Below are positions 1,615-14,867 of a DNA stretch of 39,794 nt, piece by piece. The stretch is from IMG/VR virus record IMGVR_UViG_3300044712_001626, positions 1 through 39,794 of that record; one strand, 5' to 3'. Each line of letters begins with the position of its first letter. Position 1 is the first letter of the stretch. The stretch is from a virus. The position numbers and the translations under genes are program-made. The notes under the pieces were generated by a model that saw only the letters and a list, made by a program, of their open reading frames with translations, was not told where the DNA came from and ran no database searches.

Positions 1615-1988
1615 AGGCGAAGATCGTTCTTTCCCAAGCCTTCGTCGTCGAAGCGAAAGACGCCGATATGGTCGCCTACGTGACGCGGAAATACGTCGCG
1701 CGATTTCCGACGATGGCCGGAATCGACGCGAAGGCAGGGTCCTGGAAGGCTGAGCCCTTCGATATTCTCGGAATCCATGTTGAGGAGGTCGCCGATGCCG
1801 AAGGACAACCAGGGGCCGTGGTCGAGGGACGAGATCATGGAAATGATCGACCTAGCGAAACAGGCGCGCCTCTCAACAAAAGATCAAATCATGATCGGGT
1901 ACATGCTGGAGAACTATCATTCGGCGGCGATGAGAGCGGAAGACGCGATACATCGGCTAACGAAGTAAAGGCGCTCGAGATTTTCTAG
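1611..1988 (+). CDS. Hypothetical protein; 3' half overlaps another gene
   Basis: A GTG start overlaps the preceding TGA (GTGA). The first 60 or so residues read like a normal protein (KIVLSQAFVVEAKDADMVAY onward, mixed alpha/beta). From about base 1795 the frame is shared with a second gene that has a better ribosome-binding site. In that half this frame gives a low-complexity Gly/Arg/Asp-rich tail that looks like a shadow translation. Either the two genes truly overlap for 174 bases, or a stop or frame was lost by mutation. The N-terminal half is supported by coupling and codon bias; the C-terminal half is doubtful. Confidence 0.5.
   Translation: MKAKIVLSQAFVVEAKDADMVAYVTRKYVARFPTMAGIDAKAGSWKAEPFDILGIHVEEVADAEGQPGAVVEGRDHGNDRPSETGAPLNKRSNHDRVHAGELSFGGDESGRRDTSANEVKALEIF
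1795..1968 (+). CDS. Small helical hypothetical protein (57 aa)
   Basis: ATG 1795 lies eight bases after AGGAGG (1782-1787), the best ribosome-binding site in this stretch, so this start is preferred over an in-frame ATG at 1777. The product is an amphipathic helical protein with the central segment EIMEMIDLAKQARLS and C-terminus AEDAIHRLTK. It overlaps the 3' half of the gene starting at 1611 in a different frame. Of the two frames, this one has the more protein-like composition. The function is unknown. Confidence 0.6.
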   Translation: MPKDNQGPWSRDEIMEMIDLAKQARLSTKDQIMIGYMLENYHSAAMRAEDAIHRLTK

Positions 1989-1991
1989 CGT

Positions 1992-2010
1992 CCGCGCCGC
2001 TTAAGCGCGG
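1992..2010 (+). other. Perfect 6-bp hairpin before the next gene
   Basis: CCGCGC (1992-1997) and GCGCGG (2005-2010) pair perfectly around a seven-base loop. The hairpin ends right before GAAAGGA, the ribosome-binding region of the gene starting at 2025. No T-run follows, so it is not a classical terminator. It could protect mRNA ends or tune translation of the membrane protein that follows. Confidence 0.4.
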
Positions 2011-2024
2011 GAAAGGATTCACGA

Positions 2025-2375
2025 GTGAAGAGGATCATCGGCTTCATGATCGTGTTGGCGTTGCTGATCGTCATCCCGGTCGCCGCGTCCCCGCCCATGG
2101 GACCGTACGTCGAAGGCGTTTCGCTTTCGGCCGTCTCCATGGATACCAGCATCGTCGCTTTCAAGGAGGCCCTCCCGGCCGTCTCAAGCACGTCGACCAA
2201 GGAATTGGCCGTCGCGTTCAAGCCCTACTACCTATACGCCACCGCGGCCACGTTGGCCGGCCTCATGTGCTTCTTCGTCGCCAACCATCTGTTAAGCCCG
2301 AAGAAGAGGGAATACTTGAGCCGGCGCATCGCCCGCATGACCTACAACGCTAGGGACCAGACCGCCGCGGCTTAG
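2025..2375 (+). CDS. Small membrane protein with N-terminal signal/anchor
   Basis: GTG 2025 follows AAAGGA. The 116-residue product begins with a basic pair and a hydrophobic segment (residues 4-21, ending near VAASPP) that reads as a signal peptide or signal anchor. A second hydrophobic helix at about 66-88 (YLYATAATLAGLMCFFVANH) is followed by a basic C-terminus with KKREYLSRRIARM, predicted to be cytoplasmic. The region between is probably extracytoplasmic. No family is recognised. It is the last gene before a 450-base non-coding island, so it may end the first early operon. Confidence 0.7.
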   Translation: MKRIIGFMIVLALLIVIPVAASPPMGPYVEGVSLSAVSMDTSIVAFKEALPAVSSTSTKELAVAFKPYYLYATAATLAGLMCFFVANHLLSPKKREYLSRRIARMTYNARDQTAAA

Positions 2376-2470
2376 GAAGATAAACGAATCGATCGAAAAT
2401 ATGGCCGATGAATCGGCCGGCCCCATAAGGGCATTGAAGCGGCCGTGCCTGTTGGCCTCCGGCCGAACTA

Positions 2471-2552
2471 GGGAGCGATAGCCGGCACGGGCCGGAACTT
2501 GGTGCACGAGTTGATCCGCGAGGATATGACGGTTCAAACCCGTCCGCTTCCA
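2471..2552 (+). ncRNA. tRNA-like element with a long variable arm, non-standard anticodon loop
   Basis: All the arms of a class II tRNA can be drawn in order. The acceptor is GGGAGCG (2471-2477) with CGCTTCC (2545-2551), 7 bp with one G-T. The D-arm is CCGG/CCGG around CACGGG (2482-2495). The anticodon arm is AACTT/GAGTT (2496-2512, one T-G) with loop GGTGCAC. The variable arm is ATCC-GCGA-GGAT (2514-2525). The T-arm is GACGG-TTCAAAC-CCGTC (2528-2544). Oddities are a four-base linker before the D-arm, no standard GG-A D-loop, and G instead of T at position 33. No CCA is encoded. The anticodon would read TGC, but Ala tRNAs are not class II. It is more likely a tRNA mimic or decayed tRNA than a working one. 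Confidence 0.45.
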
Positions 2553-2637
2553 GGTACCTGGTCGAAAGACCTGAGAGCCATGTTCTACCCACATAGCCGG
2601 CTGCGGTTCCCACTTTCGGATCGGGACAAAGAGGTAG

Positions 2638-2723
2638 CTGGCGACGCGATACCCTGGCGCGGGTCCAGGGATCATGGCAGCGTCCCGTATGCGCGAACTC
2701 CATCGCGCGGAGAGGGTAGCCAG
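2638..2723 (+). ncRNA. Three-way junction fold within the non-coding island
   Basis: CTGGC (2638-2642) pairs with GCCAG (2719-2723). Directly stacked on it, GACGC (2643-2647) pairs with GCGTC (2680-2684) and encloses the 6-bp hairpin CCCTGG/CCAGGG (2652-2670). A third helix, GCGCGA/TCGCGC (2691-2708), completes the junction. All helices are perfect Watson-Crick. Ordered nesting of four helices in 86 bases is hard to explain by base composition alone and is the best local evidence that this island makes a folded RNA. Confidence 0.45.
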
Positions 2724-2826
2724 GTAGGCGCCGGACTTCGTCTACCAATGGAGCCCAGAAGGCCGTCGACTCGGCCTCGCTGCAAGATCGGCCCATAGGG
2801 TCGAAATCAATCATGAAGGAGTGACC

Positions 2827-3060
2827 ATGCCGAAGTTGACCGAGAAGGAAAAGAAAGAGAAGGCGAAGGCCGCGAAAGAGCAGAAGGTCCGCAAGATCCT
2901 GGGCGAGGGGATTTTCCCAAGTGGCGCCAAGGACGCGCTCGAAGCGACCATCCAGAACTTCCTGGACGTGAAGCCGATGAAGGAAGCCAGGAAAAACATC
3001 ACGGCCCAGCTCAAAGCGCTCGACAAGGCCATCGCCGTTCTCAGCCCGCCCAAGGTCTAG
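2827..3060 (+). CDS. Small Lys-rich helical protein between two RNA islands
   Basis: ATG 2827 is chosen over a GTG at 2821 because AAGGAG (2815-2820) is correctly spaced only from the ATG. The 77-residue product starts MPKLTEKEKKEKAKAAKEQK, a strongly basic helix, followed by a more neutral helical part ending KALDKAIAVLSPPKV. No family is recognised. The gene is the only convincing CDS between 2376 and 3368 and is flanked by the structured island and the second tRNA-like element. A basic helical protein in this place might bind nucleic acid, possibly the neighbouring RNA; this is inference from position and charge only. Confidence 0.7.
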   Translation: MPKLTEKEKKEKAKAAKEQKVRKILGEGIFPSGAKDALEATIQNFLDVKPMKEARKNITAQLKALDKAIAVLSPPKV

Positions 3061-3084
3061 CATCACGCCGGGGGATCCCGGCAC

Positions 3085-3155
3085 GCCGAGATGGCCGAGC
3101 GGTTAGGCAGCGTGGTCAATGCGCGCTTAGGCGGGTTCGACTCCCGTGATCGGCT
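3085..3155 (+). tRNA. Degenerate tRNA, Leu-like CAA anticodon, variable arm missing
   Basis: The arms are visible in order. The acceptor GCCGA pairs with TCGGC (5 of 7 pairs; pairs 6 and 7 mismatch). The D-stem is GCC/GGC (3094-3096, 3106-3108) with a GG-containing loop of class II type. The anticodon stem is GCGTG/CGCGC (3110-3126) with loop GTCAATG, giving CAA at 3117-3119. The T-arm is GCGGG-TTCGACT-CCCGT (3131-3147). A Leu tRNA should have a long variable arm, but only four bases (3127-3130) sit there. No CCA is encoded. GATCGGC (3148-3154) can instead pair with GCTGATC just downstream. It is probably a decayed or repurposed phage tRNA. Confidence 0.5.
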
Positions 3156-3328
3156 TTAGCTGATCCGCCTTGAGCGGAAACAGTAAAGGGGCCCATTTAT
3201 ATGGACTCCGGCAATAAATGGCTCGCGACGGCGAGATCGTAAAACGGGGACGGGACCGAAGCCAAGCGGCCGCACCATCCCGGCGCATCGTAAGGCGCAG
3301 GCAGACCGGGCGCGGTCGGTAACTCCTT
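3156..3328 (+). ncRNA. Structured leader between tRNA-like element and terminator
   Basis: There is no gene here. Visible helices are TCCGC/GCGGA (3164-3178), CCATTTAT/ATAAATGG (3193-3221, 8 bp, 13-base loop), immediately followed by CTCGC-GACG-GCGAG (3222-3235), and GACCG-GGCG-CGGTC (3304-3317). The AT-rich 8-bp stem is notable because the surrounding sequence is GC-rich. With the tRNA-like element upstream and a T8 terminator downstream, the whole stretch 3085-3355 reads as one short non-coding transcript or a long regulatory leader. Confidence 0.4.
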
Positions 3329-3355
3329 GAGCCCGCGCTCGGCTGCCTTTTTTTT
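3329..3355 (+). terminator. Rho-independent-type terminator with T8
   Basis: GAGC-CCGC-GCTC (3329-3340) is followed by GGCTGCC and eight T residues (3348-3355). CTGCC (3343-3347) can also pair with GGCAG (3300-3304), closing a larger branched stem directly against the T-run, which is the better terminator geometry. It ends the non-coding RNA stretch, 13 bases before the next ATG, so it could also act as an attenuator for the genes from 3369 on. Confidence 0.65.
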
Positions 3356-3368
3356 GCGAAAGGGGATC

Positions 3369-3530
3369 ATGAAAGACATCCTAAATATCGTCCCGAACCC
3401 GCCGAAGCCGTCGCCCTCCTGCGTCGATCTAGTCCGCATCGATGCCCACCTTCACCGGGTGTCCTGTTCGTCGCGGGGCATGGTGACGACGGAGGAATGC
3501 GTCAAGTGCATGCAGAGGCGGAGGGGATGA
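3369..3530 (+). CDS. Small Cys-containing hypothetical protein (53 aa)
   Basis: ATG 3369 follows AAAGGGG at a suitable distance. The longer in-frame ATG at 3327 falls inside the terminator stem and is rejected. The product ends with CVKCMQRRRG and has two more Cys residues upstream (near residues 17 and 33), so a small zinc site is possible. Its TGA overlaps the ATG of the next gene (ATGA). No family is recognised. Confidence 0.55.
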   Translation: MKDILNIVPNPPKPSPSCVDLVRIDAHLHRVSCSSRGMVTTEECVKCMQRRRG

Positions 3531-4171: not shown

Positions 4172-5745
4172 TCCTCCGCAAGCACCAAGCCGAGATCGAA
4201 GCCCTGGCCTGGAGGATCCATGAGGGCGAGGCGATCACGAAGATCTACGCCGCAGTTACACCTGGCGGCGGGAAAAGCGCGCTTCCTCCGATCCTCTCTG
4301 ACATCCTCATCGGAGGGAATGCTTTCGATTCGATCGTTTGGGTCGTCCCCAGGAATTCCCTTCGCGACCAGGGCGAGGGAGACTTCGCCTCCTGGAGCCA
4401 GCGCGGGTTCAGGATCCGCGCGGCCGGGAACTCGGGCGATCCATTCAGAGGATACGCGGGCTACATCACCACCTACCAGGCCATCGTCGCAGATCCAGGA
4501 TTCCACCGGCGGGCGCTCCGCGGGCGCCGGTTCATTCTCTTCCTCGACGAACCCCATCACCGACTTCAGGGAGGGCCCTGGGATACCGCTATCGCTCCGC
4601 TAGAGGAAGCGGCTGGCCTGGTCGTCTATGCCTCCGGTACCTTCGCGCGTGGTGACGGGCAGGCTATTGCCGGGATCGATTACCAGGTCGGTCGGCCGGT
4701 CTTCTTGTGGCCGAACAAGGCCGCGGTCATCTACTCCCGCGGTGATGCGCTCCGGGAGGGCGCCATCGTCCCGGTGGAATTCCGATACCTGGACGGAAGG
4801 ACCGAATGGGAAGAGGAAGGGGGGCACCGCTCCGCCGGATCCTTGGCCGGGGGCGACTACGCCTCCCAAGCGCTCTTCACCGCGCTCCGGACCGAGTACG
4901 CCCTCGAGCTCCTGGACGAGACCGTCGCCGACTGGCGCCGCCACCGCGCCGCGGTCTATCCGGGGGCGAAGCTTTTGGTCGTCGCGCCGTCTATCGCCCT
5001 GGCCAAGACCTACCAGGACCACCTCCACCGTCGGAAAATAGACGCCTTGATTGCCACCTCTGACGATGACGCGGCGGCGCGCGAGGCGATCGCCCGCTTC
5101 AAGGGGCAGGCCCCGCCTGAAGTAGACGCCCTCGATAGCGTCGGGATGTGCTACGAAGGACTTTCAGTCCCTGCCGTCACCCATATCGCCTGCCTCACCC
5201 ATATCCGCTCGATCCCCTGGCTGGAGCAATGCTTTGCCCGCTCCAACCGCACCGCGCCAGGGAAGGTAGCCGGATTCGTCTATGGGCCTAACGACGAACG
5301 CTTTCGCGCCGCAATCGCCTCCATTGAGGCGGAGCAGGTCCAAGCCCTAAAGGACCGCGCTGAGCGCGAAGGCGGTACAGCCGGCGAGGAATCGGAGGGG
5401 CAGGGCGGGCAGGCCCGGAAGTGGATCCAGCCCTTGCGGTCGGAGGCGATCCGGCTGAGCGGCGGGACGTTCGAGCCGTTCGATGATCCGGAAGCGGCAT
5501 CCTATGAGACGGCCCGCCCCGACGGGGGCCTGACGCCCTCCGCGGCCGAGCACCTCCTCCGGAATCAGATCGCCCGTCATCTCGAGATCGTCCTGGGGCG
5601 GATGCGGCCGGGGTCGAAGGGGCCCATGTCGAAGATCCTTTTTCGGAAGCTCAAGGAGACGGTAGGAGGAAAGTCGCGGGAGGACTGCACGACGGAGGAG
5701 CTGGCCAGGCAGTGGGCCTGGCTTAAGGAGAAGTACCCGGTATGA
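4168..5745 (+). CDS. Superfamily 2 DNA/RNA helicase
   Basis: The GTG start overlaps the preceding TGA. The 525-residue protein shows SF2 motifs in order: Walker A TPGGGKS (31-37), motif Ia VVPRNSLRDQ (about 55-64), DEAH-type box DEPHH (127-131), motif III SGTF (156-159) and motif VI QCFARSNR (354-361) with the arginine fingers. The two RecA-like domains span about residues 1-180 and 235-390. The last 130 residues are an extension rich in Glu and Arg of unknown role. ATP-driven DNA unwinding or remodelling in phage replication or recombination is likely. It is the last gene of its operon, ending five bases before the convergent ribbon-helix-helix gene. Confidence 0.9.
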   Translation: MILRKHQAEIEALAWRIHEGEAITKIYAAVTPGGGKSALPPILSDILIGGNAFDSIVWVVPRNSLRDQGEGDFASWSQRGFRIRAAGNSGDPFRGYAGYITTYQAIVADPGFHRRALRGRRFILFLDEPHHRLQGGPWDTAIAPLEEAAGLVVYASGTFARGDGQAIAGIDYQVGRPVFLWPNKAAVIYSRGDALREGAIVPVEFRYLDGRTEWEEEGGHRSAGSLAGGDYASQALFTALRTEYALELLDETVADWRRHRAAVYPGAKLLVVAPSIALAKTYQDHLHRRKIDALIATSDDDAAAREAIARFKGQAPPEVDALDSVGMCYEGLSVPAVTHIACLTHIRSIPWLEQCFARSNRTAPGKVAGFVYGPNDERFRAAIASIEAEQVQALKDRAEREGGTAGEESEGQGGQARKWIQPLRSEAIRLSGGTFEPFDDPEAASYETARPDGGLTPSAAEHLLRNQIARHLEIVLGRMRPGSKGPMSKILFRKLKETVGGKSREDCTTEELARQWAWLKEKYPV

Positions 5746-14115: not shown

Positions 14116-14190
14116 AATAGAGCAAGCAAAAAGGGCTGAAAATAGGGGGCTTGCCAAAATAGTTTCATCGGCGCACCTTCCGAACTGAGA

Positions 14191-14206
14191 GGCTAGGGGA
14201 CTAGCC
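14191..14206 (+). other. Perfect hairpin just before the TerS ribosome-binding site
   Basis: GGCTAG-GGGA-CTAGCC forms a 6-bp stem with a four-base loop, followed directly by AAAGG, the likely ribosome-binding site of the gene at 14220. There is no T-run, so it is not a terminator. It might set translation of TerS or be part of the packaging site. Confidence 0.45.
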
Positions 14207-14219
14207 AAAGGCGGAACTG

Positions 14220-14867
14220 GTGGCCAAGGCTAAGGCGGCAGGAAAGACGAAGGCGAGCGCGCGAAAAGTTGCTACTGGGAAAGTAGCGGCGAAGACGCGC
14301 GCTCGTGCTTCGGCACCCTCTATCGCGCGAACGACGCCAAAGAGCGCGCCGAAGAGGACTGCCGCCGAGAAGCCGAAGGTCGGACGGCCGACCGATTACG
14401 ATCCTGGATTTCATCCTGCGCTTGCCGAAGCCTGGGCTACGGCCGGCCGGACCGATAAGCAGATCGCCGAGAAGCTTGGGGTTGCCGAGTCAACGCTGCA
14501 CCTCTGGAAAAAGCAGCACCCAGAATTTTCGGAGTCCCTAAAGCGAGGGAAGGACGGCCCGGACGATCTTGTCGAGGCAAGTCTTTTCCAGCGGGCAACT
14601 GGTTATAATTACGATTCCGAGAAAATCCTTACGGTCAGCGATGGGCAGGGACTCGGCTCTCACGTTGAGCGATTGGCGACCGTCGAGCATTGCCCGCCAG
14701 ACGTCACGGCCCAGATCTATTGGCTGAACAACCGCCGGCCGGCGCGGTGGCGCAATCGCCACGAAGTGACCGGGCCCGATGGCGGGCCTGTTGACGTTTC
14801 GCTTCTCACCCCGAACGAACGCAAGGCGCGCATCGCTGAGCTGCTCAAGAAAAAGGGCGCCGAATGA
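14220..14867 (+). CDS. terS: Terminase small subunit
   Basis: The 215-residue product has an N-terminal tail of about 55 residues very rich in Lys, Ala and Arg, then GRPTDYDP (about 59-66), a helix-turn-helix (KQIAEKLGVAESTLHLWKK, about residues 81-99) and the EASLFQRATGY segment typical of phage small terminases. The C-terminal part with LTPNERKARIAELLKKK would contact the large subunit. It recognises the packaging site and regulates TerL. The GTG start follows AAAGG; a later start near residue 50 cannot be excluded because the Lys/Ala tail is low complexity. It is directly coupled to TerL (ATGA). Confidence 0.9.
   Translation: MAKAKAAGKTKASARKVATGKVAAKTRARASAPSIARTTPKSAPKRTAAEKPKVGRPTDYDPGFHPALAEAWATAGRTDKQIAEKLGVAESTLHLWKKQHPEFSESLKRGKDGPDDLVEASLFQRATGYNYDSEKILTVSDGQGLGSHVERLATVEHCPPDVTAQIYWLNNRRPARWRNRHEVTGPDGGPVDVSLLTPNERKARIAELLKKKGAE

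What the first reader, a model, noticed from the sequence alone, without database searches (positions are those of the whole stretch)
2376..2820. 445-base non-coding island filled with nested hairpins
Elsewhere the phage wastes almost no sequence, but this stretch has no gene and is tiled by perfect short helices, including a GNRA tetraloop and a three-way junction. It may be an uncharacterised large phage RNA, placed next to tRNA-like elements as are GOLLD and ROOL RNAs. The possible long-range helix 2443-2449 with 2484-2490 suggests alternative folds.
Basis: partly seen in the sequence, partly recalled or inferred. Interest (0 to 1): 0.75.

Follow-up and report, generated by a model that had tools for sequence, protein, structure and literature searches.

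The report
Phage array of anticodon-defective tRNA mimics
The gene-free stretch is not one big RNA but a string of swappable RNA units that keep the outer half of a transfer RNA and have lost or replaced the part that reads the genetic code, a kind of phage RNA that gene finders mostly overlook and whose purpose is unknown.

Summary
The 445-nt non-coding island (2376-2820) is real. It lies between genes on the same strand and has no conserved reading frame. Its folding energy is only moderately unusual: the left half is exceptional, the right half is not. The GOLLD/ROOL-type large-RNA reading is not supported. Rfam gives no match, the proposed long-range helix is lost in a close relative, and the GNRA-capped 'junction' is a tRNA-like cloverleaf.

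The island carries two tRNA-like units (2471-2552 and about 2676-2784); a third lies at 3085-3155. Each keeps an acceptor stem and a T arm but lacks a normal anticodon arm. In the nearest relative (genes mostly 90-98% identical) both island units are replaced by unrelated sequence, while spacers stay 94-95% identical; the replacements also have acceptor stem, T arm and a defective anticodon domain. The third unit differs only in its anticodon arm.

At least ten related phages or prophages carry similar units in the same neighbourhood and strand. T4's stable RNA rnaC also has a T arm.

Best reading: tRNA mimics released by host tRNA-processing enzymes, perhaps acting as decoys. The identity is fairly secure; the function is inferred. 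A separate discovery, intron-like ~42-nt inserts in phage tRNA genes, is listed in passing.

The parts
2403..2465 (+). leader with three hairpins H1 (2403-2418), H2 (2420-2432), H3 (2440-2465)
   Evidence: Predicted folds; 95% identical in L038; recognisable in L040 with changed but still paired H1 and H2 (GCCC/GGGC in the window, GCCGCT/AGCGGC in L040)
2471..2552 (+). tRNA-like unit 1: acceptor 2471-2477/2545-2551, anticodon-like arm 2496-2512 with loop GGTGCAC (G where U33 belongs), variable arm 2514-2525 with GCGA loop, T arm 2528-2544, A2552, no CCA
2553..2675 (+). conserved non-coding spacer with GAAA-tetraloop hairpin 2560-2571
   Evidence: 94% identical in L038, one compensatory pair among 29 predicted
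2676..2784 (+). tRNA-like unit 2, enlarged: acceptor GCAGCG 2677-2682/CGCTGC 2778-2783, T-arm-like hairpin 2760-2777 with a shortened loop
   Evidence: Fold and coordinates; 46% identity to the L038 occupant of the same slot, which is a tRNA-like unit found by ARAGORN and RF00005. The weakest of the three units.
2827..3060 (+). small ORF (77 aa from ATG, lysine-rich), RBS-like AGGAG at 2817-2821, between units 2 and 3
   Evidence: ORF list; 52% identity in L038, with conserved N-terminal and divergent C-terminal part; no Pfam or PHROG match
3085..3155 (+). tRNA-like unit 3 (ARAGORN tRNA-Leu caa): Ser/Leu-type D arm, no long variable arm, two mismatches in the acceptor; anticodon arm altered in L038
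   Evidence: 51 of 51 nt identical to L038 outside 3109-3128, and 13 of 17 plus a 3-nt gap inside; not over RF00005 cut-off
3300..3355 (+). intrinsic terminator that ends the unit
   Evidence: Terminator-like stem and T run; 91% identical in L038

Best explanation
The island is an array of non-decoding tRNA-like RNAs carried in a small transcription unit that ends at the terminator at about 3355. Shown by sequence: each unit has an acceptor stem and a T arm (degenerate in unit 2) and no normal anticodon arm; units 1 and 2 are exchanged as whole cassettes between close relatives while spacers stay fixed; in the retained unit 3 only the anticodon region changes. Inferred: host RNase P and RNase Z cut the units out of the transcript, CCA is added, and the products persist as tRNA mimics. 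Their most likely role is as decoys or sponges for host factors that recognise the elbow and acceptor part of tRNA, such as tRNA-cleaving defence toxins, rather than as decoding tRNAs.
For: Strict acceptor+T-arm scan over 18 family loci: 9 hits on the gene strand, 0 on the other, 0 in 20 shuffled sets; relaxed scan 30 against 3. ARAGORN with introns allowed finds unit 1 at exactly 2471-2552 and similar units in relatives. Cassette pattern against L038: spacers 94-95% identical, units 46-52%, yet the replacements are again tRNA-like with defective anticodon domains. Unit 3 changes confined to 20 of 71 nt; I estimate p about 0.002 for five events falling there by chance. Same kind of units in at least ten related records, some over the RF00005 cut-off despite replaced anticodon arms: L042 41.1 bits, L050 44.8 bits. 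Anticodon changes in phage tRNAs are linked to evasion of tRNA-cleaving defences (PMC10264068; PMC12409363).
Against: The window units score below RF00005 (0 matches at E<=1); unit 2 has a short T loop and unit 3 two acceptor mismatches. No RNA data. The decoy role is inference only; no target is known. Only one close relative was available, so decay is not excluded for single units.
Confidence: 0.45

Rival explanations
1. Processing punctuation or natural tRNA scaffold: the tRNA-like units serve mainly as cut sites and stable ends, so that RNase P/Z release and protect the spacer RNAs, the small ORF message, or RNA carried in place of the anticodon arm.
For: Spacer 2553-2676 is as conserved as coding sequence (94%); the small ORF lies between units 2 and 3; L131 and L044 also have a small ORF next to tRNA or tRNA-like genes.
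Against: It does not by itself explain turnover of whole units, or why the anticodon arm is the part that varies in unit 3.
Confidence: 0.22
2. Decaying phage tRNA genes (pseudogenes) with no function.
For: Ordinary tRNAs occur in the same places in relatives; window units score below RF00005; unit 3 has acceptor mismatches.
Against: Replacement sequences in the same slots keep acceptor stem and T arm; unit 3 is 51/51 identical outside the anticodon arm; enlarged units with perfect 7-bp acceptor stems recur in distant relatives.
Confidence: 0.16
3. Intron-bearing tRNA genes that are spliced into ordinary decoding tRNAs.
For: Intron-like inserts do exist in other phage tRNA genes (62 of 88 give a perfect anticodon arm when the insert is taken out, 0.72 expected); ARAGORN fits 'introns' to several family units.
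Against: Window units lack the conserved insert; unit 1 is of ordinary length with G33; the unit-3 counterpart in L038 lacks a 7-nt loop.
Confidence: 0.07
4. One large structured RNA of GOLLD/ROOL type spanning the island.
For: Non-coding, structured, phage-borne, near tRNA-like genes; GOLLD and ROOL often lie near tRNA islands, and tRNAs occur in some GOLLD linkers (PMC12286853).
Against: No Rfam match in the window or at E<=5 to these families in the region; island shorter than GOLLD RNAs, many of which exceed 800 nt; mosaic between close relatives; long-range helix not conserved; right half folds no better than chance.
Confidence: 0.05

Closest known systems
Phage T4 rnaC (species 1 RNA, 139-nt small stable RNA in the T4 tRNA cluster)
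   Same: Phage-encoded non-tRNA RNA next to tRNA genes with a perfect canonical T arm (CCGGGTTCGAATCCCGG) at its 3' end and an unusual body
   Different: Single RNA beside a run of ordinary tRNA genes; its ends pair less well than unit 1; no sequence similarity searched or claimed
Phage-encoded tRNAs with anticodon-loop changes (mycobacteriophage C1 cluster; T5 tRNA-Lys against PARIS)
   Same: tRNA-shaped phage RNA whose anticodon region differs from host tRNAs, proposed or shown to counter tRNA-cleaving defences (PMC10264068, PMC12409363)
   Different: Those are decoding tRNAs with small changes; here the anticodon arm is defective or replaced
Bacterial Y RNA YrlA (RF02553)
   Same: Known non-decoding bacterial RNA that mimics tRNA (from general knowledge)
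   Different: No YrlA match and no TROVE/Ro gene in the window or relatives
GOLLD and ROOL RNAs
   Same: Non-coding structured phage RNAs often near tRNA islands
   Different: Single large RNAs that assemble into cages; no Rfam match here and mosaic rather than unitary evolution
Engineered tRNA scaffolds for recombinant RNA
   Same: A tRNA body holding a foreign element in place of the anticodon arm, as in relatives L042 and L050 (general knowledge)
   Different: Artificial; no natural phage family of this kind found in the held literature

Membership tests
tRNA (RF00005), decoding | covariance-model score at or above the gathering score | tested here: not met
   Window: no match at the gathering score and none at E<=1. 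Several relatives' units do pass, e.g. L042 41.1 and L050 44.8 bits
tRNA (RF00005), decoding | 5-bp anticodon stem with 7-nt loop, U33 and purine 37 | tested here: not met
   Unit 1 loop GGTGCAC has G33; unit 3 loop GTCAATG has U33 but U37 and is lost in L038; no such arm identified in unit 2
tRNA-like RNA (acceptor stem + T arm) | 7-bp acceptor stem closing a canonical T arm | tested here: met
   Unit 1 fully; unit 2 only 6 bp with an altered T loop; unit 3 with two acceptor mismatches
GOLLD / ROOL | Rfam covariance-model match | tested here: not met
   No match at gathering score nor to these families at E<=5 in 2300-3450
GOLLD / ROOL | homo-oligomeric RNA cage | not testable with these tools
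   Needs purified RNA and cryo-EM
YrlA (bacterial Y RNA) | RF02553 match and a TROVE/Ro partner | tested here: not met
   0 of 13 genomes or records for each
T4 rnaC-like stable tRNA-like RNA | canonical T arm in a non-tRNA body | tested here: met
   T4 rnaC and unit 1 both have it; resemblance, not shown homology
T4 rnaC-like stable tRNA-like RNA | stable processed RNA in infected cells | not testable with these tools
   No RNA data
phage tRNA with ACAGCAA mini-insert | 37-60-nt insert at tRNA position 28-30 with hairpin and ACAGCAA | tested here: not met
   Motif absent from the window units (sequence); present in about a hundred other phage loci

The most novel reading that the evidence does not exclude
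Phages of several bacterial phyla maintain a class of natural tRNA-scaffold RNAs (acceptor stem, T arm and often D arm, with the anticodon domain removed or replaced) as exchangeable counter-defence decoys. The window's island is a multi-unit array of this class, and T4's long-unexplained rnaC belongs to it.
Probability: 0.3. Interest if true: 0.8.

Novelty: new variant of a known kind. Interest (0 to 1): 0.6.

Why it matters
tRNA finders and Rfam report almost nothing here, yet the sequence holds a repeated, swappable tRNA-like design that recurs in related phages and prophages, including ones in Spirochaetota. If these RNAs are processed and stable, phages carry tRNA mimics that cannot decode, which makes the old question of why phages carry tRNA-like RNAs, T4 rnaC included, testable with defined constructs. 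It also warns that 'non-coding islands' in phages may hide whole arrays of unannotated tRNA-like genes.

Tried and rejected
Large single RNA (GOLLD/ROOL): no Rfam match, mosaic evolution. Hidden protein gene on either strand: frames broken by indels in L038. Alternative fold through 2443-2449/2484-2490: not conserved. Y RNA: no YrlA or TROVE. Archaeal-type tRNA introns: the named hosts of close relatives are bacterial, and the window units show no clean intron. DNA-level search of annotated phages: no match. The 77-aa neighbour as bait found no relatives; the 116-aa neighbour found one contig, the one already called L003/L038. Helicase searches of 393 genomes of the phylum of the Spirochaetales MAG and 341 of the phylum of the Elusimicrobia MAG gave no further matches beyond those MAGs. 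No sigma-70-type promoter in 1900-3500. Literature searches for phage tRNA decoys, phage tRNA introns or natural tRNA scaffolds found no description of these units in the held library; most subscription papers are not held, so this is weak evidence of novelty.

Full report
WHAT IS THERE. The window is an IMG/VR virus record with phage genes: RusA, a ResIII-type helicase and a Rad50-like protein, terminase subunits and a portal. Between the 116-aa ORF ending at 2375 and the small ORF starting at 2827 no credible gene exists. The two GNRA loops are the GAAA hairpin at 2560-2571 and the GCGA loop of a variable-arm-like hairpin at 2514-2525.

THE ISLAND IS BUILT OF tRNA-LIKE UNITS. 2471-2552 folds as a cloverleaf: a 7-bp acceptor stem (one G-U), a D-like hairpin, an anticodon-like arm, a variable arm and a canonical T arm (GACGG-TTCAAAC-CCGTC), with A at the discriminator position and no encoded CCA. 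ARAGORN at default misses it but calls exactly these ends when introns are allowed. Its anticodon-like loop GGTGCAC has G in place of the nearly invariant U33. A second, larger unit at about 2676-2784 has a 6-bp acceptor stem and a T-arm-like hairpin; it is the weakest of the three. A third, at 3085-3155, is what ARAGORN calls tRNA-Leu. A strict search for acceptor plus T arm in 18 family loci gives 9 on the gene strand, 0 on the other strand and 0 in 20 shuffled sets.

EVOLUTION. The nearest relative, IMGVR_UViG_3300042876_000717 (loci L003 and L038), is 90-98% identical over most flanking genes. Across the island the identities are: leader 2406-2470, 95.4%; unit 1, 51.5%; spacer 2553-2676, 94.1%; unit 2, 46.1%. 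The sequences that replace units 1 and 2 in L038 again have acceptor stem, T arm and a defective anticodon domain; the second is found by ARAGORN and RF00005. Unit 3 is identical over 51 of 51 nt outside its anticodon arm and differs only inside it. The slot after the three leader hairpins is occupied by a third, unrelated tRNA-like unit in L040, whose leader hairpins keep pairing with changed bases. Whole-unit exchange with preserved acceptor and T arms is hard to reconcile with simple decay and does not fit one integrated large RNA.

THE WIDER FAMILY. Helicase-based searches brought related phages and prophages, some in MAGs labelled Spirochaetales, Treponema and Elusimicrobia. The Elusimicrobia contig is only 4 kb and I saw no island in it, so the host range of the island itself is not settled beyond the Spirochaetales MAG (L052). 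At least ten records besides the window (L038-L042, L044, L045, L050, L052/L132, L137) carry tRNA-like units in the same neighbourhood, on the same strand as the genes. Examples are L042 8585-8700 (normal D and T arms, replaced anticodon arm; RF00005 41.1 bits), L050 5203-5296 (44.8 bits) and 4726-4843, L045 5880-6007, L041 5793-5893, L039 7161-7299 and L052 6257-6357. Ordinary tRNAs (Met in several phages, also Thr, Gly, Tyr) occur in the same places. Outside this family, T4 rnaC also has a perfect T arm in a non-tRNA body.

HOW IT PROBABLY WORKS. Shown: architecture, strand, cassette exchange, anticodon-arm turnover. Inferred: the units are excised from a transcript ending at the terminator near 3355 by RNase P and RNase Z, receive CCA, and act as tRNA mimics. 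Phages are reported to alter anticodon regions of their tRNAs in ways that evade tRNA-cleaving defences (PMC10264068, PMC12409363), which makes a decoy or sponge role the leading guess. Processing punctuation or scaffolding is the main rival. I put the tRNA-like-array identity at roughly 0.85 and the decoy function at roughly 0.35. The window units themselves fall below RF00005 thresholds, so their identity rests on the arms, on ARAGORN and on the evolutionary pattern, not on a family score.

KNOWN OR NEW. By the tests listed it is not a decoding tRNA, not GOLLD/ROOL and not YrlA. What it works like, and is nearest to, is phage-encoded stable tRNA-like RNA such as T4 rnaC, here in a multi-unit, cassette form. 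Hence 'new variant of a known kind'.

SIDE FINDING. Searching IMG/VR for expanded tRNAs showed something different and widespread: inserts of 37-60 nt (most often 42-43) at tRNA position 28-30, with a hairpin followed by ACAGCAA. Taking the insert out in a script gives a perfect anticodon arm in 62 of 88 cases against 0.72 expected from shuffled inserts. Similar elements occur in Aeromonas phages Aeh1, PX29, Ah1, phiAS5 and phiWae14 and in a 735-kb phage. The window units do not contain this insert.

Noticed in passing
IMG/VR loci L158, L165, L188, L224, L275-L344 and others: Phage tRNA genes with a 37-60-nt intron-like insert at tRNA position 28-30: a hairpin (5-9 bp in 61 of 62) followed by ACAGCAA. 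In 62 of 88 loci taking it out gives a perfect anticodon arm (0.72 expected from shuffles); anticodons include Lys UUU, Thr UGU, Asn GUU, Pro UGG.
   Followed up: partly
L265 2710-3175 (Aeromonas phage Aeh1) and the same region in L266-L268 and L270: Three tandem expanded tRNA-like units in a non-coding stretch of about 450 nt in Aeromonas phages; deposited annotations disagree or are missing (tRNA-Val, tRNA-Leu in two pieces, tRNA-OTHER, tRNA-Ala, none).
   Followed up: partly
L385 1409-1547 (T4 rnaC, minus strand): T4 species 1 RNA carries a perfect canonical T arm, CCGGGTTCGAATCCCGG.
   Followed up: partly
window 14248-14310: A very stable hairpin at the start of the predicted terminase small-subunit ORF: z = -5.2 for 14201-14422, the most negative of the windows sampled, and -4.2 for 14150-14430.
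   Followed up: partly
window 2827-3060: The small lysine-rich ORF is itself chimeric against L038: the first ~94 nt are 87% identical, the remaining ~140 nt 54%.
   Followed up: no
L042 6368-6439, L052 5839-5910, L131 7234-7305, L134 3870-3943, L137 4067-4141: tRNA-Met genes recur in the phages of this family, with initiator-like D arms.
   Followed up: no
window 3156-3298: A second non-coding stretch after unit 3, only 44% identical to L038 and possibly another replaced unit; it holds GGCAATAAATGG after a hairpin, loosely like a motif in the Aeromonas units.
   Followed up: no
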